A DNA stretch of 42,043 nt. Source: Clostridia bacterium. GTDB lineage: Bacteria > Bacillota > Clostridia > Oscillospirales > CAG-272. The notes under the pieces are model-generated. The model ran no database searches. It was not told the DNA's origin and saw only the letters and a list, made by a program, of their open reading frames with translations. The stretch is taken from positions 1 through 42,043 of the forward strand of contig JAFYOX010000039.1 of NCBI GenBank assembly GCA_017547755.1, read 5' to 3'. Positions 1,299 through 42,043 of this stretch are shown here, one piece after another; within the stretch, counting starts at the first letter, position 1; every line of letters begins with the position of its first letter. The position numbers and the translations under genes were made by a program.

Positions 1299-1740
1299 TG
1301 GGGAGGTGGGGAAGGTGCGGATTTTTCGGGAAAGGGGATACGGTCGCTTTCCCGAAAAAAGCTCCGCAAAAACTTCAATCTGTGGCAGCCATCTTTTGCA
1401 GTTGACATGGAATGGCGGAGAAATTTGCAGGAACAAAATTTGATTCGAATTCTGTAGGGGCGATTCACGAATCGCCCGTTTAACGAATTGAATTTCCTGA
1501 ATTTTGTCGATAAATCGTTTGTTTTGGCTGATAAAATATTGTTTTATCCAATTTTACCGACGGGCGATTCGTGAATCGCCCCTACAGATGTACGACATCA
1601 GCGCACAAACCCATCAAAAATCCCTTTTCACAAACCCATATCAGCTGCACAATCCGTCAGCACCGTATAAAAGTTTTTGCGGAGCTTTTTTCAAAAAGCG
1701 ACCGTATCCCCCTTCCCCTAAAACCCGCACAAACTCCCCC
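1299..1740. repeat. Family B repeat copy 1, gutted and interrupted by a family D element
   Basis: The gap between guaA and spoIIE holds the two outer inverted-repeat arms of a family B element and no gene. The left arm (about 1299-1430) contains GATACGGTCGCTTT and CTCCGCAAAAACTTCAATCTG. The right arm (about 1604-1740) is their reverse complement and continues through GCGCACAAACCCATC. The conserved 450-base centre seen in the other B copies is missing; a family D element lies there instead. The right arm ends directly at the spoIIE stop codon (1741). Confidence 0.7.
1453..1586. mobile_element. Family D MITE copy 1 (134 bp)
   Basis: TGTAGGGGCGATTCACGAA begins at 1453 and its inverted partner ends in CCCCTACA at 1586. 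Each arm is itself nearly palindromic (GGGCGATTC and GAATCGCCC around two or so bases). The AT-rich middle carries no ORF. Short flanking sequence (AAAATTTGATTCGA on the left) is shared with copies 2 and 3, so the real element may extend beyond the inverted repeats. No transposase is encoded. Confidence 0.75.
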
Positions 1741-7359: not shown

Positions 7360-7913
7360 CCAAACTTCACGTTTGGATTGTAAGGAAGAAAAACGACCGT
7401 TGGTCGTTTTTCTTGATTAATGCCCCTGCGCGGGGCAGGCGCATAAAGGGGCTCAAGCGCCGCCCCTTTATGAATACCGGCTGGGAGACCCTGTGGGTCT
7501 CCGGAAGCCCTTCGGGCGGATTGTTATCGTTCTGTTGTGGGGTAGAGAATACGACAAGCCGAACGTACCGTCCGTATGGGAAGTTGATTCTGGCTGACCG
7601 CCGGAGGTTAGGGGGTAACGTTCGCCGCTTTATCTGAAGATAACCTCCACCGCTGTTTCTGCTGAACGTGCGTTTTGGACAAGTCTGCACCCAACTCCGT
7701 AACTTCCAAACGTTTTGCCGCGTGAAAACCGCTGTCTGTCCGAGCGCTCAAGCGCGAGTCACACGTACGCAGGAGAATCCAAGGGGGAACCCCCTTGGTC
7801 GGGGTGATTCACAAGAGGGCGACGACTCGCCCTCTTGTGCGCCGCCACGCGCAGTGGCATTAATCCTGAAAACCGCCGTCAGACGGTTTTCTACCTTCCG
7901 CGGCGAAGCCGCG
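7360..7913. repeat. Family A structured repeat, copy 1
   Basis: This fills the gap between holA and the RNase M5-like gene. Order of visible hairpins: CCAAAC/GTTTGG; a T-rich stem around GACCGTTGGTC; GCCCCTGCGCGGGGC; ATAAAGGGGC/GCCCCTTTAT; GAGACCC/GGGTCTC; GCCCTTCGGGC. A conserved core of about 230 bases follows, from GGTAGAGAATACGAC to GTCTGTCCGAG and including TTATCTGAAGATAA. Then come GCGCTCAAGCGC, CCAAGGGGG/CCCCCTTGG, CACAAGAGGGCG/CGCCCTCTTGTG, AAAACCGCC/GACGGTTTT and CGCGGCGAAGCCGCG. The two ends are imperfect inverted repeats of each other. It ends three bases before the holA stop. Short ORFs inside are not conserved in frame between copies. Confidence 0.8.
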
Positions 7914-7915
7914 CC

Positions 7916-8989
7916 TTACCCGCCGCAGATCAGACGTTCGATCACCTCATAGCCGAGAGGCGTCGACTTGATCTTCCGGTCTGCCTCCGCACACCGCGCC
8001 GCCGCGCGGTCAAAATACACCGCCGGACGGCTCTTCGCCGCCGTCATGTATAACCCCGCCTTGTAGGTGTGCATCTTCATCATCTTCGCAAATTCCGCAC
8101 TGCTGATCCCTTCTTCCAGCGCGTGCGCCGCCGCCGCAAGATCGCAGAATACCCGCGTGATCTGCGAAAGAACAATGATCGGCTCTTCCTTCTTCCGCAT
8201 CTTCACCGCAAGTGCGTCCAGCGCCGCAGGAATGTTTCCCTCGAGAACGCAGTTCGCCAGCCGGAACGCATCGTCTTCGTCCGTCCGCGTCACCGTCGCT
8301 TCCACATCCTCCATCGTCACTTCCGTACGGCCCGATTCCGCCGCATACGCCGCCGTCTTCGCCAGTTCCCCCGACAGACGGTACATCGACCGTCCGCACA
8401 GATTCAGAATCCGCATCGATACCCCCTGCGGGATCGTCAGTCCGTATTCCGCAAAGTGCCGCTCGATCCAGCGCACCAGCCGCGCGTCCGTCTGATAATC
8501 AAACTGCACCGTCTTCATGATCTTCCCCGCGTTCTTCAGAAACGACGACGGACGCTTCGCGTTCCCCGCGTCAAATCCGTCCGCCGCCACACGCAGGATC
8601 ACCACCACCGAATCCGCCACGTTCGCCGCGTCCCCGAACATCGACAGCGCCATGCCGTCGCCTCCGTCGTCGTCAAATGCATCCTCAAGCATTTCAAGCA
8701 GCGCCGTACGCTCCTTTTCGTTCAGGAATTTGTCCAGATTCGACAGCGATATGTCCACGAGCTTCTTCTCCGCCATCACCGGCGGCGCCAGCACCGCTTC
8801 ACGGATCGCTTCCAGATCGTACGAATCGTCCGCAAACCGCGCGTAGTTGAACGCCGCAAAGCCCGGATCCGTCACCACCGCCGCCTTCATCTGCGCGGCA
8901 TAGTGATTCTTCATATAGTCTTCGTCTCCGTAAAAGAAATACATTCCCCGCGGAGCCTTCACTTCGCTCCGAAGTTCGCTTTCCGTCAT
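7916..8989 (-). CDS. holA: DNA polymerase III delta subunit
   Basis: Clamp-loader subunit that opens the beta sliding clamp. The 357-residue protein begins with the family pattern PRGMYFFYGDEDYMK (the degenerate nucleotide-binding region of a delta subunit). It continues with a lid-like middle containing RWIERHFAEYGL and a helical C-terminal collar domain ending EVIERLICGG. The length matches HolA (about 340). AAAGGCGG precedes the ATG at 8989. The gene diverges from the DUF2974 gene at 9111 across 121 bases. Its stop codon abuts family A copy 1, whose first hairpins probably terminate it. Usual neighbours (comEC, rpsT) are not present. Confidence 0.92.
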   Translation of the reverse strand: MTESELRSEVKAPRGMYFFYGDEDYMKNHYAAQMKAAVVTDPGFAAFNYARFADDSYDLEAIREAVLAPPVMAEKKLVDISLSNLDKFLNEKERTALLEMLEDAFDDDGGDGMALSMFGDAANVADSVVVILRVAADGFDAGNAKRPSSFLKNAGKIMKTVQFDYQTDARLVRWIERHFAEYGLTIPQGVSMRILNLCGRSMYRLSGELAKTAAYAAESGRTEVTMEDVEATVTRTDEDDAFRLANCVLEGNIPAALDALAVKMRKKEEPIIVLSQITRVFCDLAAAAHALEEGISSAEFAKMMKMHTYKAGLYMTAAKSRPAVYFDRAAARCAEADRKIKSTPLGYEVIERLICGG

Positions 8990-9110
8990 GTGCAGTCCGC
9001 CTTTCTGTGGTAATTTATGGAAATTAAAGTTCTATTCATAAAGGGCGCGTATATTTTTTCACAATCGGCTGATAAAATGGAGGCAGCAAAAACGTTTTAC
9101 AGGAGTCCCA

Positions 9111-10193
9111 ATGCCCAATATTTTCGATTATCTTCTCTGGCGCGGAGACCTTTCGTTCGCCGCCGCGCCGTTCAATGAGGTGGACAACCTCATTCTTGCC
9201 ATGCTTTCGTTTATTGAATACCGGAACATCGTTCCGTCCGCGCTTCTCGGCACGCCGGTGAAACTGTCGGAATGCCTTCGCCGCTACGAGGAAAACTTCC
9301 CCGGCGGCGAGGATTTCGGCGTGATCGTCCCGCCGGAAACGACGGATCTGTTCCGCTGTGCCGCGTCGTCCGCCCGCTTTTCGGAAATCTACGCCGCGTA
9401 TTATATGAATATCACGGACGAAGAGGAACCGATGCAGTTTGCGGCAGTCACCTATATCCTTCCGGACAATTCGCTGTTCATTGCCTTCCGCGGAACGGAC
9501 GACAGCCTTGCCGGCTGGCGCGAGGACTTCAACCTGAGCTTCACGTGCCCGATCCGTTCGCAGGAACTCGCGGCGGCGTACGTCCGTGACGTCGCATCCG
9601 TCTACCGCGGAGACATCCGTATCGGCGGACACTCGAAAGGCGGAAACCTGTCGGTCTATGCGGCCGCATTCGTGCCGCCGCACGTACAGCAGCGGATCCT
9701 CACGGCATACAGCAACGACGGCCCGGGATTTCTCGCGCCGGTCCTCGAATCGCCGGAATACCGGGAGATCGCGGGCCGGGTCATCACGTTCGTTCCGCAG
9801 TCCTCCGTGATCGGGATGCTTCTCGAACACGACGGGGAGTACCGCGTGATCGAGAGTACGATCCACAACGGTCTGTTCCAGCACGATCCGTTTTCGTGGA
9901 GCGTTGCGGGTCCGCAGTTCATCCATCTGGACAGTCTGTCGAAGCAGGGACAGCGTCACGACCGCGTTCTGCGGTCATGGCTGTCGAAGCTGGACACGGA
10001 CGAACGCCGGAAGTTCACGGAAACGCTGTTCGGCGTTCTCGAATCCACGGGAGCAAAGACGGTGTCCGACCTTACGGAAGGCCGGCTGAACAGCATCGGC
10101 ACGATCCTCCGGACGTTCGGGAATCTGGATCGTGAGACGAAGGATCAGGTTTATAATTTTATCAAACAGCTCGCGGAGTCCGCGGTGGAATAG
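9111..10193 (+). CDS. DUF2974 (Mbeg1-like) alpha/beta-hydrolase protein
   Basis: A 360-residue cytosolic protein of the lipase-like DUF2974 family, common in gut Firmicutes. The alpha/beta-hydrolase core shows the oxyanion-side strand FIAFRGTDDSLAGWREDF and the nucleophile elbow GGHSKGGNLSVYAA, where serine in GHSKG would be the nucleophile. An acid and a histidine are expected downstream, with candidates near SNDGPGF and LLEHDGEYRV. No signal peptide is seen. AGGAG sits seven bases before the ATG at 9111. The true substrate is unknown for the family; lipase activity is only inferred. The stop is five bases before the first hairpin of family A copy 2. Confidence 0.85.
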   Translation: MPNIFDYLLWRGDLSFAAAPFNEVDNLILAMLSFIEYRNIVPSALLGTPVKLSECLRRYEENFPGGEDFGVIVPPETTDLFRCAASSARFSEIYAAYYMNITDEEEPMQFAAVTYILPDNSLFIAFRGTDDSLAGWREDFNLSFTCPIRSQELAAAYVRDVASVYRGDIRIGGHSKGGNLSVYAAAFVPPHVQQRILTAYSNDGPGFLAPVLESPEYREIAGRVITFVPQSSVIGMLLEHDGEYRVIESTIHNGLFQHDPFSWSVAGPQFIHLDSLSKQGQRHDRVLRSWLSKLDTDERRKFTETLFGVLESTGAKTVSDLTEGRLNSIGTILRTFGNLDRETKDQVYNFIKQLAESAVE

Positions 10194-10198
10194 GGTAC

Positions 10199-10744
10199 GC
10201 GGCTTCGCCGCGATAGGTGGAAAAATGACCTGACGGTCATTTTTCTTGATTAATGTCCCTGCGCGGGACGGGCGCCTAAGAGGACCGGTCGCGGTCCTCT
10301 TAGGAATCTCCACGACCAAGGGGGTTCCCCCTTGGATTCTCCGCCATCTTTCAGTCAGAGGGTAGAGAATACGACGGCAACATGACTGCCGTCCGTATGG
10401 GAAGTAGATTCTGGCTAACCGCCGGGGGTTAAGGGTGGCGGTTGCCGCTTTATCTGAAGGTAAATCTGAAGATAACGTCCACCGCTGTTTATAGTGAACG
10501 TACGCTTTGGACAGATCTGCACCCAACTTCGTAACTTCCAAACAGTCTGCCGCATGAAAACCGCTGTCTGTCCGAGCGCTCAAGCGCGAGTCCCCTATAC
10601 GCCGGGGTATCCAAAGGGGTGTCCCCTTTGGTCGAGGTGATTCACAAGAGGGCATCGACATGCCCTCTTGTGCGCCGTCCGCGCAGGACATTATTCCTGA
10701 AAACCGCCTTCAGGCGTTTTTCTTCCTTCCGCGACGCAGTCGCG
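10199..10744. repeat. Family A structured repeat, copy 2
   Basis: It lies between two convergent genes, the DUF2974 gene and the ynbB-like gene, and touches both stop codons within 12 bases. The hairpin order is as in copy 1 but with changed, still paired, stems: GACCTGACGGTC, TAAGAGGACC/GGTCCTCTTA, CCAAGGGGG/CCCCCTTGG, GACGGCA/TGCCGTC, GCGCTCAAGCGC, CAAAGGGG/CCCCTTTG, GAGGGCA/TGCCCTC. The core has a local duplication around TTATCTGAAG (10450-10475). No gene is present. Confidence 0.8.
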
Positions 10745-10755
10745 CCTTCCCTCAC

Positions 10756-12090
10756 TCACTCCTGTGCAGCAGAATTCACCTTGTCGGCGGCAGCCATAAT
10801 GCCCAGTCTGGCACTCTCATACGTCAGACCGCCCTGCATGAACGCCGTGTACGGCGCACGCATCGGCCCGTCCGCGGACAGCTCGATCGACGCACCGCCG
10901 ACAAAAGCACCGGCCGCCATGATGACCGGATCCGCATAGCCCGGCATTTCCCACGGGTACGGCGTAACGTGCGCGTCGATCGGCGATGCCGACTGGATAC
11001 CGCGGCAGAACGCCACCAGCTTTTCCGGCGCGTCGCAGTCCACCGCCTGTACAATGTCGCTCCGGCGGACATCCCATGCCGGATTCACGCGGTAGCCCAT
11101 TTCGCCGAACATATATGCCGCAAGATGCGCCGTCTTCATCGCCTGCGCCACCGTGTGCGGCGCGTAGAATAAACCTTTGATCAGATTGCGGTTCTGTCCG
11201 AGGGATGCACCCACTTCCAGACCGACGCCCGGCGAGGTCAGACGGTAGCCGCAGAGGTCGACCGCCTCTTTGGTACCGACGATGTAGCCGCCGATGTCCG
11301 CCATGCCGCCGCCCGGATTCTTGATGAGCGAACCCGCCATCAGGTCGACGGCACATTCGTCCGCCGCACCGTTCAGCGGCTTTCCGCACGGTTCTTCGAT
11401 CTCGGTGAACTCGCCGTAGCAGTTGTCCACCATGAATACCGGCTTCTTCATGCCGGATTTTTTTGCAAATTCCGCAACTTCGTACGCCGCACGGCGGATC
11501 TCGCGTACCGTCAGCGTCGGACGGTCTGCGTAACCCTTGGAACGCTGGACGTACACCATCTTCACGCGGTCGCCGTATTCGGCGAGGATCGCGCGCATAC
11601 CGTCGAAATCGAACGGCAGACCTTCCGCGTCACGCGGCTGAAGATCGGTCTTCATGAAGGTCACGCCGAAATCGGCGAGGGAGCCGTCGCCGTTCTTGCC
11701 GTTCGGCTGTGCGTTTCCGTCGATGCCGATGACGTCAAGAAGGGTATCGTACGGGGTACCGGAGATGGAGAGCATGATATCGCCCGGACGGAGGATGCCG
11801 AACAGACCGACGGTGAGGGTATGCGTACCGGAGAGAAGCGAGGTACGCATGAATCCTGCTTCCGCACGGAAGATCTTCGCCGCGAGGATATCGATCATAT
11901 CGCGGCCGCGGTCGCCGTAGCCGTAGCCGGTGGACGGCGCGAAGAGGGATTCGGAGACTTCGCACTGCCGGAAGCAGTCGAGGACGTGTTCGGTATTGAA
12001 ACGCGAGATCGCGTCGATGTCGTGATAGATGGCGGACATAGCGGATTCCGCCTGATCCGCGAGGGATCGGATGTTGGGAGAGATATTCAT
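10756..12090 (-). CDS. ynbB: Methionine gamma-lyase family PLP protein (YnbB-like)
   Basis: A 444-residue fold-type I PLP enzyme of the family annotated as methionine gamma-lyase-like or aluminium-resistance protein, found widely in Firmicutes. Visible features are the substrate and cofactor loop SLLSGTHTLTVGLFGILRPGD, the PLP aspartate/asparagine region FMVDNCYGEFTE, and the probable Schiff-base lysine in DLMAGSLIKNPGGGMAD. The length is normal (about 420-440). The ribosome-binding site before the ATG at 12090 is weak. Usual neighbours miaA and hfq are missing. It is flanked on both sides by family A repeats. The physiological substrate of YnbB is not established. Confidence 0.88.
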   Translation of the reverse strand: MNISPNIRSLADQAESAMSAIYHDIDAISRFNTEHVLDCFRQCEVSESLFAPSTGYGYGDRGRDMIDILAAKIFRAEAGFMRTSLLSGTHTLTVGLFGILRPGDIMLSISGTPYDTLLDVIGIDGNAQPNGKNGDGSLADFGVTFMKTDLQPRDAEGLPFDFDGMRAILAEYGDRVKMVYVQRSKGYADRPTLTVREIRRAAYEVAEFAKKSGMKKPVFMVDNCYGEFTEIEEPCGKPLNGAADECAVDLMAGSLIKNPGGGMADIGGYIVGTKEAVDLCGYRLTSPGVGLEVGASLGQNRNLIKGLFYAPHTVAQAMKTAHLAAYMFGEMGYRVNPAWDVRRSDIVQAVDCDAPEKLVAFCRGIQSASPIDAHVTPYPWEMPGYADPVIMAAGAFVGGASIELSADGPMRAPYTAFMQGGLTYESARLGIMAAADKVNSAAQE

Positions 12091-12148
12091 AATCTTACGC
12101 TTTCTGTATTACAAAATTTTGTATTTTCTGAAATTATCGTTTTTTATA

Positions 12149-12704
12149 TGCACCTTCGGTGCAGAAGGAAGAAAAATGACCTTTGGTCATTTTTCTTGGA
12201 TTTATGCCCCAGCGCGGGGCAGGCGCATAAGAGGTCTCCGGCGCGAGACCTCTTATGAATCACCCGCGCTGGGAGACCCATAGGGTCTCCGGAAGCCCTT
12301 CGGGCAGATTGTTATCGTTCAGTTGTGGGGTAGAGAATACGACAAACCGAACGTACCGTCCGTATGGGAAATTGATTCTGGCTGACCGCCGGGGGCTGGG
12401 GGTAACGTTCGCCGCTTTATCTGAAGATAACGTCCACCGCTGTTTCTGCTGAACGTACGCTTTGGACAAATCTGCACCCGACTCCGTAACTTCCAAACGT
12501 TTTGCCGCGTGAAAACCGCTGTCTGTCCGAGGCCCAAAGGCCGAGTCACACGAACATACGGGGTATCCAAAGGGGTGTCCCCTTTGGTTGCGGGTATTCA
12601 CAAAGGGGCGGCAACGGAGCCCCTTTGTGCGCCGTCCGCGCAGGACATTAATCCAAGAAAAACGACCGCCAGGTCGTTTTTCCACCTTCCGCGACGCAGT
12701 CGCG
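12149..12704. repeat. Family A structured repeat, copy 3
   Basis: It lies between mnmG and the ynbB-like gene in the same orientation as copies 1 and 2. The core is over 90 percent identical to copy 1 by eye. Stems differ but stay paired: GCACCTTCGGTGC, GACCTTTGGTC, AAGAGGTCTC/GAGACCTCTT, GAGACCCATAGGGTCTC, GGCCCAAAGGCC (copy 1 has GCGCTCAAGCGC at this place), CCAAAGGGG/CCCCTTTGG and CACAAAGGGGC/GCCCCTTTGTG. It ends 24 bases from the mnmG stop. No gene is present. Confidence 0.8.
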
Positions 12705-14699: not shown

Positions 14700-15387
14700 G
14701 GGGGATACGGTCGCTTTTTGAAAAAAGCTCCGCAAAAACTTCAATCTGTAGTAGCCGTTTTTTGAAGTTGATATGGGTTTGAAAAGGGATTTTTTGATGG
14801 GTCTGTGCGCTGACATTTGGTTTGTCCCAGCCGACAAAGTGGAGCGATCCAAATTCTAAGAAGTAGTGGAGACGGAAATCAGGGCATTCGCTCCCTGATT
14901 TCCCACGCCGGTTATGGATACGATGATATCGTGCGTCACGTTAGAATTCAGCTACATATTATTGGGTATCCGCACTCCTTGGCTGCCGCCGTTCGTGCTT
15001 TGCGTTTATGCAAACTTTACGTCAGCCGACAGAACAAGCGAAAAGCGCGGACGGCGGTATAGCCAAGCCGCGCGGATGCTGACGCATCCGTAGAAGTATT
15101 TCTATATTCCGCACGATATCACGGTTATCCCATACGGCGTGGGAAGTCATGGGTCTAAGAGACTTTCTTCGAAAGTCTCATGCGGCCCCTGACTTCCGTC
15201 TCCACCCTTCCTCAGAATTTGGATCTCTCCTATTTTGTCAACTGGGACAAACTATATGGCTACGCACAGACCCATCAAAAATTCCCTTTCAAACCCATAT
15301 CAACTACCCAAACCGGCTACACACGAGACACTGCGTGTCTCTGAAAAGTTTTTGCGGAGCTTTTTTCAAAAAGCGACCGTCTCCCCT
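14700..15387. repeat. Family B nested-inverted-repeat element, copy 2 (complete)
   Basis: The whole 870-base gap between mnmG and the antiporter contains this element and no gene. Outer arms of about 110 bases pair (GATACGGTCGCTTTTTG ... CAAAAAGCGACCGT). Inside them pair GGGTCTGTGCG/CGCACAGACCC, TTTGTCCCAG/CTGGGACAAA, GATCCAAATTCT/AGAATTTGGATC, GTGGAGACGG/CCGTCTCCAC and TCCCACGCCG/CGGCGTGGGA. The core has CTTGGCT/AGCCAAG, CCGCCGT/ACGGCGG and the hairpin GGATGC-TGAC-GCATCC. The entire element could fold as one long branched structure. Confidence 0.75.
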
Positions 15388-15415
15388 TTCCCGTACAATT
15401 TGCACCCACTCCCCC

Positions 15416-15443
15416 TTGCAAAATAAAAATAACGTGGTATAAT
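15416..15443 (+). promoter_or_regulatory. Promoter of the antiporter gene
   Basis: TTGCAA (15416-15421) and TATAAT (15438-15443) are 16 bases apart, just outside the right end of family B copy 2. The leader would be about 38 bases. Confidence 0.65.
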
Positions 15444-16909: not shown

Positions 16910-16921
16910 AATTTATTTTTT

Positions 16922-16957
16922 CCGGGGAGAAACTTTTTGAAAAAAGTTTCTCCCCGG
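16922..16957. terminator. Family C hairpin, probable terminator of the antiporter gene
   Basis: CCGGGGAGAAACTTTTT pairs with AAAAAGTTTCTCCCCGG around a GAA-type loop. A conserved tail (CCCCTCTTCAAAAACTTTTACACGAT) follows, and then a second imperfect palindrome starting GACAGAGTACGGTGC (about 16990-17050). Related hairpins plus tails recur near 28534-28655 and 38942-39000. Confidence 0.65.
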
Positions 16958-17060
16958 AACCCCTCTTCAAAAACTTTTACACGATGATAATGACAGAGTA
17001 CGGTGCAAATTGTCTGTTATATATTTGCGCTGTCCGCTCTCTGTCTGAAAGGATACTGCT

Positions 17061-25463: not shown

Positions 25464-26040
25464 AGGGGAGTTTTTTATGGGTCTGTGCGCTGACATTTAG
25501 GTTGTCCCAGTTGACAGGAGTGGAGCGATCCAAAGCCTATGGAGTAGTGGAGACGGAAGTCAGGGGCCACCGAGACCCTGACTTCCCACGCCGTGAAGCG
25601 ATTTGGAGATACAGTGCGTTATGTTAGAATTCAGCTACATTTTATTGGATATCCGCACTCCTTGGCTGCCGCCGTTCGTGCTTTGCGTTTGTGCAATCGA
25701 TACGTCAGCTGACAGAACGAGCGAAAAGCGCGGACGGCGGTCTAGCCAAGCCGCGCGGATGCTGACGCATCCGTAGAAGGATAACTATATTATGCACAAA
25801 ATCCCGGTTATCCCATACGGCGTGGGAAATCAGGGTCTCGGCGGCCCCTGATTTCCGTCTCCACCCTTCCTCAGGCTTTGGATCGCTCCACTCCTGTCAA
25901 CTGGGACAAACTATATGGCTACGCACAAACCCATCAAAAATTCTTTTTCCTCTCCCATATCAACTACACAGTCCGGCTACAACAGATTGAAGTTTTTGCG
26001 GAGCTTTTTTCAAAAAGCGACCGTATCCCCCGTATCCCCT
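25464..26040. repeat. Family B nested-inverted-repeat element, copy 3
   Basis: It occupies most of the 750-base gap after the transporter operon; no gene is present. The inner part is complete: GTCCCAGTTGACAGGAGTGG pairs perfectly with its inverse near 25880-25910, continuing through CGATCCAAAGCC/GGCTTTGGATCG. The core shares CCTTGGCTGCCGCCGTTCGTG, GGATGCTGACGCATCC and TTATCCCATACGGCGTGG with copy 2. The left outer arm is missing beyond TTTTTTATGGG, while the right outer arm is present. It ends about 48 bases from the alr stop. Confidence 0.75.
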
Positions 26041-26087
26041 TTCCTCCACCCCCGCACCCAACAAAAAAACAGCGGCAAAACCGCTGT

Positions 26088-30793: not shown

Positions 30794-30910
30794 CCTAACT
30801 TTACGTTTGGGTTTATAAGGAAGAAAAATGACCTGTCGGTCATTTTTCAATTTTATGCCCCTGCGCGGGGCGGCGCACAAGAGGTCCTCGCGCGGGACCT
30901 CTTGTGAATC
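30794..30910. repeat. Family A partial copy (one end only)
   Basis: It contains the first hairpins of a family A end: CCTAAC/GTTTGG (imperfect), ATGACCTGTCGGTCAT with T run, GCCCCTGCGCGGGGC, and CACAAGAGGTCC/GGACCTCTTGTG. The core and the other end are missing. It lies 40 bases past the stop of the PHP gene. Confidence 0.75.
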
Positions 30911-33626: not shown

Positions 33627-33731
33627 TCTGTGATGTCCTGAATTATCTGAAAATTTAAACTGAATTTTATTAACCTCGTCCGATAACCTGTCCTGCAGCA
33701 AATCCGGATGAACAAAATTTGATTCGATTCC

Positions 33732-33970
33732 TGTAGGGGCGATTCACGAATCGCCCGTCTGACAATTTGAAATTCCTGAATTTTGTAAGCAGATCCTTCA
33801 TTTACAGTTATCAGAATATAGTTTTGTCCAATGATACAGATGCCGATATCCCGGATCCTCTGCATAACGCAGCGAATGGGCAGAGTTTTGTAAGCAAATC
33901 CTTCGTTTTGACTGCTGAAATAAGGTTCCGTCTGATTTTACAGACGGGCGATTCGTGAATCGCCCCTACA
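33732..33970. mobile_element. Family D MITE copy 2 (239 bp), internally expanded
   Basis: It begins TGTAGGGGCGATTCACGAATC and ends with the inverse at 33970. The middle contains a direct duplication: TTTTGTAAGCAGATCCTTC (33781 on) recurs as TTTTGTAAGCAAATCCTTC (33887 on), explaining its greater length than copy 1. The left flank AAAATTTGATTCGATT matches that of copy 1. Confidence 0.75.
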
Positions 33971-34083
33971 GGTATACGACAAATTCCAGTCTGTATAAGG
34001 TTATCGGACAGATCTGTTTGAGCTGCCCCCTTCCCGGTCCAAAGGTTGTTGGAAGGGTACGGTTCCGACTTGCAAGCAAGTCA

Positions 34084-37071: not shown

Positions 37072-37248
37072 TGTAGGGGCGATTCACGAATCGCCCGTCT
37101 GTAAAATCGGGCAAAACCTCATTTTAACAGGATATAAAACACAGGAAAAAGCTGAGGCATTCAAAAAATACAGAAAAAACGACAGATTCATTTGCAAAAT
37201 ACAGGAAATTCAAATTGTCAGACGGGCGATTCGTGAATCGCCCCTACA
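37072..37248. mobile_element. Family D MITE copy 3 (177 bp), opposite orientation
   Basis: It begins TGTAGGGGCGATTCACGAATC (37072) and ends with its inverse (37248). The flanks (CACAT on the left; GATCAAATCAAATTTCGTTC on the right) match the opposite flanks of copies 1 and 2, so this copy is inverted. The centre is AT-rich and unlike copies 1 and 2. It lies between nrdG and rbsK. Confidence 0.75.
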
Positions 37249-37887: not shown

Positions 37888-38928
37888 TCATGCGATCACG
37901 CCCGCGCAGACCACAGTATCTCCGTCGTAGACGACGGCAAACTGTCCCGGAGTCGGTGCACGCTGGGGTTCGTCAAAGGTGAGGACCGCGGTATCTCCGG
38001 TGACGGTCAGTTTTGCCGGCGCCGGACGGTGCGCGTAACGCAGCTTCGCGGTATAGATTCTGTCCGGATCGGGAGTATGTCCGGAAATAAAGCTGAGACC
38101 GGTCACGGTGACATCGGTGCGGAAGAGTCCGTCTTCATCGCCGAGGGTGACGCGGTTCTGTTCCGCGTCCTTGTCAAGCACAAAAACGTGCTTTCCCATC
38201 GAAATGCCGAGACCCTTTCTCTGTCCGATGGTGTACTGCCACTGACCCTTATGCTTTCCGAGGATCTTTCCGGTCCCGTCGATGTAGTCGCCGGGCTGAT
38301 CGGTGATGCCGCAGCGCTTTTTGAGGAACGCGGCGTAATCGCCGTCCGGAATGAAGCAGATGTCCTGGCTGTCGCTCCGGCTGGCGGAAGCAAAACCGTG
38401 CGAAGAGGCAAGTTCGCGTACTTCCGGCTTGGTCATCCCGCCGAGCGGAAAATCCGCGGCGGCAAGCTGTTCCTGCGTCAGCATCGCAAGGACATAGGAC
38501 TGATCCTTGCGCGCGTCGGCGGCACGGCGCAGGTATGCGGTGCCGTTCACGGTTTCCGTGACGGCGTAATGCCCGGTAACGATCCGGTCAAAGCCGTGTT
38601 CCTTCGCCCAGTCATACAGCAGACCGAACTTGATCTCCCGGTTGCAGACGACGCACGGGTTCGGCGTACGTCCGCGGAAATATTCCGCCGTGAAATAATC
38701 GATCACGGCGTTCTCAAACTGCGCGCGCGCATCCACGGATACGTGCGGCACGCCGAGACGTTCACAGACATCCTTCGCGTCGGCGCAGTTCTTTTCGTCG
38801 GCCTCATGATCCGCCGACAGACAGAGCGTAACGCCGCATACGGCATCACGCCCGTACTTTTCCATAGCAAGAAGCATCGCGGCGCTGGAATCCACGCCGC
38901 CGCTCATGGCAACAAGTGTTTTGGGCAA
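37888..38928 (-). CDS. mnmA: tRNA-specific 2-thiouridylase MnmA
   Basis: Adds sulphur at C2 of wobble U34 in tRNA-Lys, -Glu and -Gln, using ATP and a sulphur carrier. The 346-residue length is normal. The pyrophosphatase loop AMSGGVDSS is at residues 8-16. Catalytic cysteines are in TPNPCVVCNREIKFG and SQDICFIPDGDY. The C-terminal beta-barrel is complete. The start is TTG at 38928 (read as Met), because the only nearby ATG (38907-38905) would remove the first beta-strand. A weak GAG element lies upstream, so initiation may be inefficient. With MnmG this window encodes both C2 and C5 U34 modifications. Confidence 0.95.
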   Translation of the reverse strand: MPKTLVAMSGGVDSSAAMLLAMEKYGRDAVCGVTLCLSADHEADEKNCADAKDVCERLGVPHVSVDARAQFENAVIDYFTAEYFRGRTPNPCVVCNREIKFGLLYDWAKEHGFDRIVTGHYAVTETVNGTAYLRRAADARKDQSYVLAMLTQEQLAAADFPLGGMTKPEVRELASSHGFASASRSDSQDICFIPDGDYAAFLKKRCGITDQPGDYIDGTGKILGKHKGQWQYTIGQRKGLGISMGKHVFVLDKDAEQNRVTLGDEDGLFRTDVTVTGLSFISGHTPDPDRIYTAKLRYAHRPAPAKLTVTGDTAVLTFDEPQRAPTPGQFAVVYDGDTVVCAGVIA

Positions 38929-38941
38929 TTTATGTGTTCTC

Positions 38942-38973
38942 GGGGAAAAACTTTTTGAGAAAAGTTTTTCCCC
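38942..38973 (-). terminator. Family C hairpin after the polysaccharide deacetylase gene
   Basis: GGGGAAAAACTTTT pairs with AAAAGTTTTTCCCC around a short loop. The tail (CCCCTTTTCAAAAACTTTTATACGATAA) matches other family C members. It lies 90 bases beyond the deacetylase stop and just before mnmA. Confidence 0.6.
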
Positions 38974-39061
38974 AAACCCCTTTTCAAAAACTTTTATACG
39001 ATAAAGAATGAGTTTCGTTTGTGCAGATCCGCAGAACCGGATTCAGACGCCCTCTGAAAAC

Positions 39062-41808: not shown

Positions 41809-41906
41809 CGACCTTTGGTCGGTTCCGACCGAAGGTCGGGAGGAAGAAAAAAGCACCTGAAGGTGCTTTTTTCAATTAATGCCCCTGCGCGGGGCGGCGC
41901 ACAAGG
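41809..41906. repeat. Family A partial copy, interrupted
   Basis: Hairpins CCGACCTTTGGTCGG and CCGACCGAAGGTCGG are followed by AAAAAAGCACC/GGTGCTTTTTT with T run and GCCCCTGCGCGGGGC, as in a family A end. The next hairpin starts (CACAAGGGG) but is cut by the element beginning at 41907. The first three hairpins would terminate the YgjV-like gene. Confidence 0.7.
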
Positions 41907-42043
41907 GGCTGTCGCAAATTAGGAAATCGTAACCAATTCATCGGCAACATACACAAGAAATCATTTGATTTCGAAAGATTAACACTTGATTTTTTGTATA
42001 TGTTACTGAACAATTGGAAACTTTACCCTAATTTGCGACAGCC
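41907..42043. mobile_element. 137-bp MITE with 17-bp perfect terminal inverted repeats
   Basis: GGCTGTCGCAAATTAGG at 41907-41923 is exactly inverted as CCTAATTTGCGACAGCC at 42027-42043. The centre is AT-rich and has no ORF. The ends recall IS1182- or IS5-like transposases, from memory only. It interrupts a family A hairpin, and the window ends exactly at its right terminus, so it may be a non-autonomous element or an assembly break within a repeat. Confidence 0.75.

What the first reader, a model, noticed from the sequence alone, without database searches (positions are those of the whole stretch)
7360..12704. Three full copies of a 550-bp structured repeat with compensatory stem changes
Family A copies at 7360-7913, 10199-10744 and 12149-12704 share a conserved core, while flanking hairpins change on both sides of the stem: GCGCTCAAGCGC versus GGCCCAAAGGCC, GAGGGCG/CGCCCTC versus GAGGGCA/TGCCCTC versus GGGGC/GCCCC, GACCGTTGGTC versus GACCTGACGGTC. 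Pairing is kept but sequence is not, the hallmark of a structure under selection as RNA or single-stranded DNA. The conserved hairpin TTATC-TGAA-GATAA sits inside the core. No family I know fits. It could be a mobile noncoding RNA element, a target for a trans-acting transposase, or a large terminator-borne RNA.
Basis: partly seen in the sequence, partly recalled or inferred. Interest (0 to 1): 0.75.

Follow-up and report, generated by a model that had tools for sequence, protein, structure and literature searches.

The report
Dispersed palindromic-armed repeats with genome-specific cores
The three copies belong to a family of some 40 noncoding DNA repeats scattered between genes of a bacterium; sister species carry many of them at the same places, yet each species has its own version of the middle part, so the middles are apparently copied from site to site while the hairpin-rich ends stay put.

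Summary
The repeats are real: three of at least 38 dispersed elements in this incomplete genome. Each has two inverted arms of stacked palindromes (H1 resembles a two-way terminator) around a core of about 230 nt. Arm pairing is conserved far beyond chance (96.2% of cells, 235 two-sided changes). But one-sided standard changes are almost absent (2 cells) and four H1 stems carry both loop orientations. That fits DNA-level upkeep of palindromes, such as template switching, at least as well as selection on RNA. In this genome the core shows no significant RNA fold.

Two sister species carry such elements at the same sites (27 site pairs with both flanks matching). Flanks and arms keep site-specific similarity. 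Cores do not: alike within a genome, no more alike at orthologous sites than elsewhere. Arms of this design with other cores also occur in another family of the order.

I read it as a BIME-like, long-lived repeat class whose cores are homogenised between sites, perhaps kept as two-way terminators. It is not in Rfam, and the REP transposase found sits beside another repeat. Function and mechanism are inferred.

The parts
7360..7913 (.). Element copy A1, whole (between the RNase M5-like gene and holA)
   Evidence: covariance-model arm hits 7383-7475 (+) and 7807-7896 (-)
10198..10744 (.). Element copy A2, whole (between the Mbeg1-like gene and the methionine gamma-lyase-like gene, which converge on it)
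   Evidence: arm hits 10215-10307 (+) and 10640-10727 (-)
12150..12704 (.). Element copy A3, whole (between the methionine gamma-lyase-like gene and mnmG)
   Evidence: arm hits 12166-12260 (+) and 12596-12687 (-)
7360..7376 (+). A1 outer hairpin H0 (left)
   Evidence: read
7389..7411 (+). A1 hairpin H1 (left): A5-stem-T5, terminator-like in both directions
   Evidence: read; family
7422..7436 (+). A1 hairpin H2 (left), loop TGCGC
   Evidence: read; family
7443..7471 (+). A1 hairpin H3 (left)
   Evidence: read; family
7484..7502 (+). A1 hairpin H4 (left)
   Evidence: read
7520..7740 (+). A1 core, genome-specific, alike between copies; no significant RNA fold in this genome (limits approximate)
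7744..7755 (+). A1 hairpin GCGC-TCAA-GCGC at the right edge of the core (GGCC-CAAA-GGCC in A3)
7779..7798 (-). A1 hairpin H4' (right)
   Evidence: read
7810..7839 (-). A1 hairpin H3' (right)
   Evidence: read; family
7844..7858 (-). A1 hairpin H2' (right)
   Evidence: read; family
7869..7890 (-). A1 hairpin H1' (right), terminator-like
   Evidence: read; family
7899..7913 (-). A1 outer hairpin H0' (right)
   Evidence: read
30818..30909 (+). Solo arm (H1-H2-H3) without visible core or second arm
41848..41915 (+). Start of an arm (H1-H2) that runs into an IS-like inverted repeat at the contig end
   Evidence: (family D8)

Best explanation
This is a long-lived family of dispersed intergenic DNA elements that works like a bacterial interspersed mosaic element and is not a distinct RNA gene. 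SHOWN: (1) full copies are two inverted arms of stacked palindromes around a core; (2) the arms' palindromes stay paired while their letters change, almost always on both sides at once; (3) many copies sit at the same gene boundaries in sister species, with flank and arm similarity that is site-specific; (4) the cores are alike within a genome and carry no site-specific signal between genomes. INFERRED: (a) cores are kept alike by copying from one site to another, most simply RecA-type gene conversion within the repeat family; (b) palindromes are kept perfect, and loops flipped, by template switching on extruded hairpins in replication, plus swapping of hairpin modules between copies; (c) H1 at each end stops transcription arriving from either side, so the element acts as a two-way terminator/insulator between neighbouring genes, which would explain why it is kept. 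Step (c) is the least certain.
For: Copies: 113 distinct elements over 170 bp (38 G000, 36 G004, 39 G013). Same sites: 40 consistent flank pairs, 27 with both flanks. Orthologous outer flanks beat shuffled pairs (0/300 in all three comparisons), arms too (0/300, 5/300, 2/300); cores do not (97.6 v 96.5, 26.5 v 24.8, 17.1 v 17.7; 10, 6 and 7 pairs), although cores within a genome score 278, 235 and 202 (up to 20 elements each). Right half of the core, 63 of the 74 G000 and G004 elements: one split separates all 28 G000 from all 35 G004 (support 0.944); identity 0.888 and 0.874 within, 0.775 between, 0.779 for 10 orthologous-site pairs; 1 of 63 has its nearest neighbour in the other genome. Pairing and lack of one-sided changes. 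Loop inversions. An A-run/T-run motif of the H1 type lies at element ends whatever the neighbour: 81 of 99 ends facing a called gene's 3' end, 79 of 96 facing a 5' end. Arms in 17 of 25 genomes of the genus. Same arm design with another genome-specific core in another family of the order: G605, 5 of 6 fetched stretches share a core at 82-92% identity.
Against: No expression, recombination or termination data. The terminator scan called 11 sites (5.4 expected), 5 of them inside the three copies, but only one overlaps an H1 (A2, right). Some G000 H1 alleles are broken at two pairs. The strict arm set is motif-selected (122 of 226); the looser parse shows more G-U and A-C, partly misplacement. 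H3's wobble-type cells are all A-C and none G-U read from outside inwards (32 v 0; 10 alleles, 3 positions), i.e. G-U in an RNA read from the core outwards, which would favour RNA. The G013 core folds better than shuffled, with covariation (z -7.0). 19 further flank pairs were inconsistent in orientation, some unexplained. The motif used for H1 had no chance control. Misjoined MAG contigs at repeats are possible.
Confidence: 0.55

Rival explanations
1. A MITE-like non-autonomous mobile element with long inverted ends, moved by an unidentified transposase with a strong preference for the same intergenic sites; each species' core reflects a recent burst of its own active version.
For: Long inverted arms, dispersed copies, a solo arm at 30818-30909, patchy presence outside the genus (8 other genomes of the 295 of an order sample; at least one of these looked spurious).
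Against: Arms at orthologous sites carry site-specific similarity, which independent insertion would not give unless the arms were the pre-existing target. I saw no longer copy with a gene inside among the listed matches in G000, but did not search for transposases other than the Y1 type. The RAYT-like gene of G000 sits by another repeat. No target duplication was seen; the one empty site found in a close relative (G004 at A3) may be a deletion.
Confidence: 0.2
2. A structured noncoding RNA (or a divergent pair) transcribed from the core and ended by the H1 hairpins.
For: Two-sided stem changes; terminator-like ends; H3's odd pairs are of the kind tolerated in an RNA read outwards; G013 core fold z -7.0 with covariation.
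Against: No significant fold for the core in G000; very few G-U pairs in H1/H2 of the strict arm set against 8.6% in 5 tRNAs, though the looser parse is less clean; neither of the two promoter-like sites of the region lies in a copy (2 found, 2.5 expected); no Rfam match at gathering score.
Confidence: 0.17
3. A REP/REPIN family served by the genome's RAYT transposase.
For: G000 and G004 each encode a RAYT-like protein.
Against: The G000 RAYT-like gene lies beside two inverted GTAG-tagged REPs of another sequence, a repeat also seen in the window at 1546, 33930 and 37208. The arms lack such a tag. No Y1 transposase match in G013 or G016, which have the arms (73% and 91% complete).
Confidence: 0.03

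Closest known systems
BIME / REP (bacterial interspersed mosaic elements)
   Same: Intergenic mosaics of palindromic units in opposite orientation in many copies; roles in termination and mRNA stability proposed (PMC3733652, passages). Gene conversion was proposed for REP evolution (Higgins 1988, seen only as a reference title there).
   Different: No GTAG/CGTC tag, about 430-550 bp instead of 20-40 bp units, several unlike hairpins in fixed order, a long genome-specific core.
REPIN-RAYT system (PMC3116915: search listing and start of abstract only)
   Same: Inverted pair of palindromes (recalled); vertical persistence of populations (PMC8049555, start of abstract only).
   Different: Much larger; the RAYT-like gene here sits by another repeat.
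Bacterial MITEs (ERIC, RUP, NEMIS, Bcr1; PMC3733652 passages)
   Same: Noncoding, inverted ends, often next to genes.
   Different: 70-300 bp with 15-30 bp inverted ends there; here arms of about 110-130 bp made of hairpins, many sites shared across species, core turnover.
Template-switch upkeep of hairpins (PMC8794818, passages)
   Same: Predicts instant two-sided changes, several compensating changes at once, and inverted loops.
   Different: Described there for RNA genes, where a compensating change with loop inversion was extremely rare and the evidence for stem maintenance is called circumstantial; here a dispersed DNA repeat.

Membership tests
REP / BIME | GTAG or CGTC unpaired tag at the hairpin foot | tested here: not met
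   consensus and invariant columns of 66 arms show no such tag at the hairpin feet; the genome's GTAG REPs look different
REPIN-RAYT | RAYT gene flanked by copies of the repeat | tested here: not met
   the G000 RAYT-like locus L139 (2.3 kb) holds GTAG REPs; no match of this element was listed on that contig
MITE | terminal inverted repeats, no coding capacity | tested here: met
   arms; no Pfam family in the three ORFs crossing the copies (proteins 6-8)
MITE | target-site duplication and mobilisation by a transposase with matching ends | tested here: inconclusive
   no duplication seen at the one empty site in a close relative; no autonomous copy seen among listed matches in G000
Known structured RNA (Rfam) | match at or above gathering score | tested here: not met
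   0 of 4227 families over the whole window; best sub-threshold match for A1 20.3 of 40 bits
Intrinsic terminator (H1) | stem followed by a T run, readable in both directions | tested here: met
   by sequence in 122 parsed arms, which were selected for A and T runs; the generic scan called only one site overlapping an H1
Intrinsic terminator (H1) | stops transcription | not testable with these tools
   needs a reporter or RNA 3'-end data

The most novel reading that the evidence does not exclude
The core is an exchangeable, self-propagating cassette that homes into resident palindromic arms: the arms are fixed docking sites inherited with the locus, while cores sweep through all sites of a genome and differ between species, a bacterial counterpart of fast-evolving satellite DNA, present in at least two families of the order.
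Probability: 0.2. Interest if true: 0.85.

Novelty: new variant of a known kind. Interest (0 to 1): 0.6.

Why it matters
It gives a clear bacterial case where a dispersed repeat is split into a part inherited by locus and a part homogenised across tens of loci, so copying between dispersed repeats could be measured directly. It also warns that two-sided stem changes in palindromic repeats need not mean a selected RNA: counts of one-sided (G-U) states and of inverted loops offer a simple test.

Tried and rejected
Tailored terminators: I first thought H1 marks ends facing gene 3' ends; the count refuted it (81 of 99 v 79 of 96; genes called by a codon-usage score trained on five window genes). 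Core replacement by unrelated DNA between species: withdrawn, since the G000 and G013 consensus cores still align in the same orientation (score 164, 1 of 500 shuffles as high) and 4-fold sites are only 52-67% identical, so fast divergence under homogenisation suffices; part of the G004 left core resembles an inverted copy of its right end. Phage or plasmid origin: no match in 50,697 phage or 72,556 plasmid records and 0 matches for one core and one arm pattern in viral contigs. Coding: no Pfam hit for three overlapping ORFs. A class-wide search with the H2-H3 model found 0 of 390 other genomes, but only 14 candidates per genome were scored and the answer does not show whether genus mates were in the sample. 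Notebook errors: entry 1 says G013 has arms at all three window sites; one search shows none at A1. Entry 2 calls the core covariation term 'unfavourable'; I misread its sign, and with shuffles replaces it. Literature: eight searches listed no report that I recognised as this element; I read passages of two papers (PMC3733652, PMC8794818) and only listings of the others.
Full report
WHAT IS THERE. Each runs outer hairpin H0 - AAGG or alike - H1 (A5 / T5 hairpin) - H2 (loop TGCGC or near) - H3 - H4 - core - H4' - H3' - H2' - H1' - H0'; the two arms are inverted copies in design, not letter by letter. The neighbouring genes match DUF4093 (which I take as RNase M5-like, recalled), DNA polymerase III delta, Mbeg1-like, methionine gamma-lyase and GidA/MnmG families; the three ORFs over the copies match nothing in Pfam.

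HOW MANY. A whole-genome search with copy A1 gave 75 matching stretches in the 3.05 Mb, 117-contig, 75% complete genome (40 of 68 candidates scored). From fetched stretches I kept 113 distinct elements over 170 bp in three genomes of one genus: 38 in G000 (this genome), 36 in G004, 39 in G013. Shorter pieces and repeats of the same stretch were dropped; some kept elements are halves or are cut by contig ends. G004 corresponds to an Oscillospiraceae MAG, isolate SIG618 (contig lengths agree).

PAIRING. For 66 arms, 22 per genome out of 122 parsed ones, 96.2% of 1621 cells pair; sliding gives 39-56%; 16 of 25 pairs change on both sides; the covariation score is reached by 0 of 500 shuffles, while further pair types do not exceed the shuffles (478 of 500). 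Half-way states are rare: 2 one-sided standard cells against 235 two-sided, with 61 cells unpaired. Over the 122 motif-selected arms (of 226 possible), H1 has 562 Watson-Crick of 586 cells, 1 G-U, 1 A-C, 22 other; H2 487 of 488, 1 A-C; H3 1256 Watson-Crick of 1342, 0 G-U, 32 A-C, 54 other, 52 of them at the innermost position. A looser parse without full motif selection gave, for H1 (164 arms), H2 (210) and H3 (80) together, 29 G-U and 72 A-C of 2289 cells. For H2, 41 of its 210 arms were imperfect; 35 of these have two or fewer Watson-Crick pairs and look like misplaced hits by eye, and some of them belong to arms whose H2 is perfect in the strict parse. Five tRNAs in the fetched DNA have 9 G-U in 105 pairs (a small control). 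Four H1 stems occur with the loop in both orientations among 58 hairpins; shuffled loops give 0.86 on average and at most 2.5 in 500 trials; H3 shows none among 46. Template switching in replication predicts instant double changes and inverted loops (PMC8794818, passages); that paper found such inversions rare and calls its evidence for stem maintenance circumstantial. So the pattern favours DNA-level upkeep but does not prove it.

CORE. In G000 the core is conserved in sequence, but its alignment (20 copies) folds no better than shuffled columns (z +0.46 and -1.65), while the arms reach -16.7 and -6.5. G004 cores (25) fold better than shuffled (-3.9, -5.9) without more covariation, apparently because the left end resembles an inverted copy of the right end; G013 cores (26) fold well with covariation (-7.0, -3.9).

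SAME SITES, OWN CORES. Matching the flanks (up to 1.1 kb) of all elements between genomes gave 40 consistent pairs, 27 with both flanks, and 19 pairs with inconsistent orientation, some because neighbouring elements share a gene, others unexplained. For 15 of 38 G000 elements both flanks lead to an element in G004 or G013. This is a lower bound: the genomes are incomplete and only elements were compared. At the window's sites, A2 is filled in all three genomes, A3 in G000 and G013 and empty in G004, A1 in G000 and G004 but not G013; G016 has a divergent element at A3, and I saw none at A3 in the seven other genus members fetched (by eye). Orthologous outer flanks and arms are more alike than shuffled pairs; cores are not. 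A tree of the right half of the core, for 63 of 74 elements, separates G000 from G004 completely, and orthologous-site cores are as far apart as any others. Elements at shared sites should be as old as the species split; that they are nonetheless alike within each genome means their cores were homogenised. Gene conversion is the simplest agent; this is inference. One G000 element (L004) leads by its two flanks to two different G013 elements, as recombination between copies, or a misassembly, would give.

HOW FAR IT REACHES. A covariance model of the arm finds it in 17 of 25 genomes of the genus (101 units in G013, 87 in G004, 77 in G000; 150 candidates scored per genome) and weakly in 8 others of the 295 genomes of an order sample (14 candidates per genome). 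Of the two order-level loci I printed first, one (G605) was real and one (G614) looked spurious. In G605, five of six fetched stretches carry the arm motif around a core of their own, 82-92% alike; in G639 four fetched stretches share a different stretch running from the arm inwards at about 70-84%; between the two genomes only arm-sized pieces match, apart from one pair that shares gene flanks (only one of the four G639 stretches was looked at by eye). A second model found none in 390 other genomes of a class sample, with shallow scoring.

TRANSPOSASE. A Y1 transposase search matched 8 of 25 genus genomes. The G000 protein resembles REP-associated tyrosine transposase (68.9 bits, under the cut-off of 80) and lies beside two inverted GTAG-tagged REPs, a repeat also in the window. 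It is therefore not the natural partner of this element. Other transposase types were not searched.

FUNCTION. An A-run/T-run motif of the H1 type was found at 160 of 195 element ends next to a called gene, irrespective of that gene's direction (loose motif, heuristic gene calls, no chance control). Of 82 elements with both neighbours called, 59 lie between genes of the same direction, 13 between convergent and 10 between divergent genes. Two-way termination between neighbours is my best guess for what keeps the arms; it is untested, and the generic terminator scan called only one site overlapping an H1.

NOVELTY. It works like BIMEs and MITEs but fails the tested defining features of REP and REPIN, and the MITE test is inconclusive. 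Eight literature searches listed no description that I recognised as this element; most subscription papers are not held.

Noticed in passing
window 14720-15417, 25466-26061, 1354-1742, 33700-33981: Other repeat families (parts D2, D4, D7, D10-D12, D16-D18), 74-90% alike between copies, apparently one larger mosaic repeat unrelated to the finding.
   Followed up: no
window 1546-1586, 33930-33970, 37208-37248; L139:786-952: GTAG-tagged REP palindromes, with an inverted pair directly beside a RAYT-like gene elsewhere in the genome: it looks like an ordinary REPIN-RAYT system.
   Followed up: partly
window 41907-42043: 57-nt imperfect inverted repeat at the contig end, IS-like, inserted into or joined to an arm of the element.
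   Followed up: no
window 16910-16985 and 38927-39002: Another long palindromic terminator-like repeat (D14); similar ones lie next to some G004 half elements.
   Followed up: no
L017, L020, L022, L025, L027 (G000); L042, L050 (G004); L077 (G013): A variant arm in which one side of H3 is replaced by a self-contained palindrome (GGAGTTCACTTCGTGAACTCC type) whose stem differs between species.
   Followed up: partly
L003, L014, L017, L021, L022, L025 cores: A unit of roughly 12-25 nt around TTTATCTGAAGATAAC is repeated in some cores.
   Followed up: no
L140:275-1528: The G004 RAYT-like reading frame carries inserts that, by eye, look like in-frame palindromic repeats.
   Followed up: no
L321: In G605 two elements lie head to tail.
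   Followed up: no
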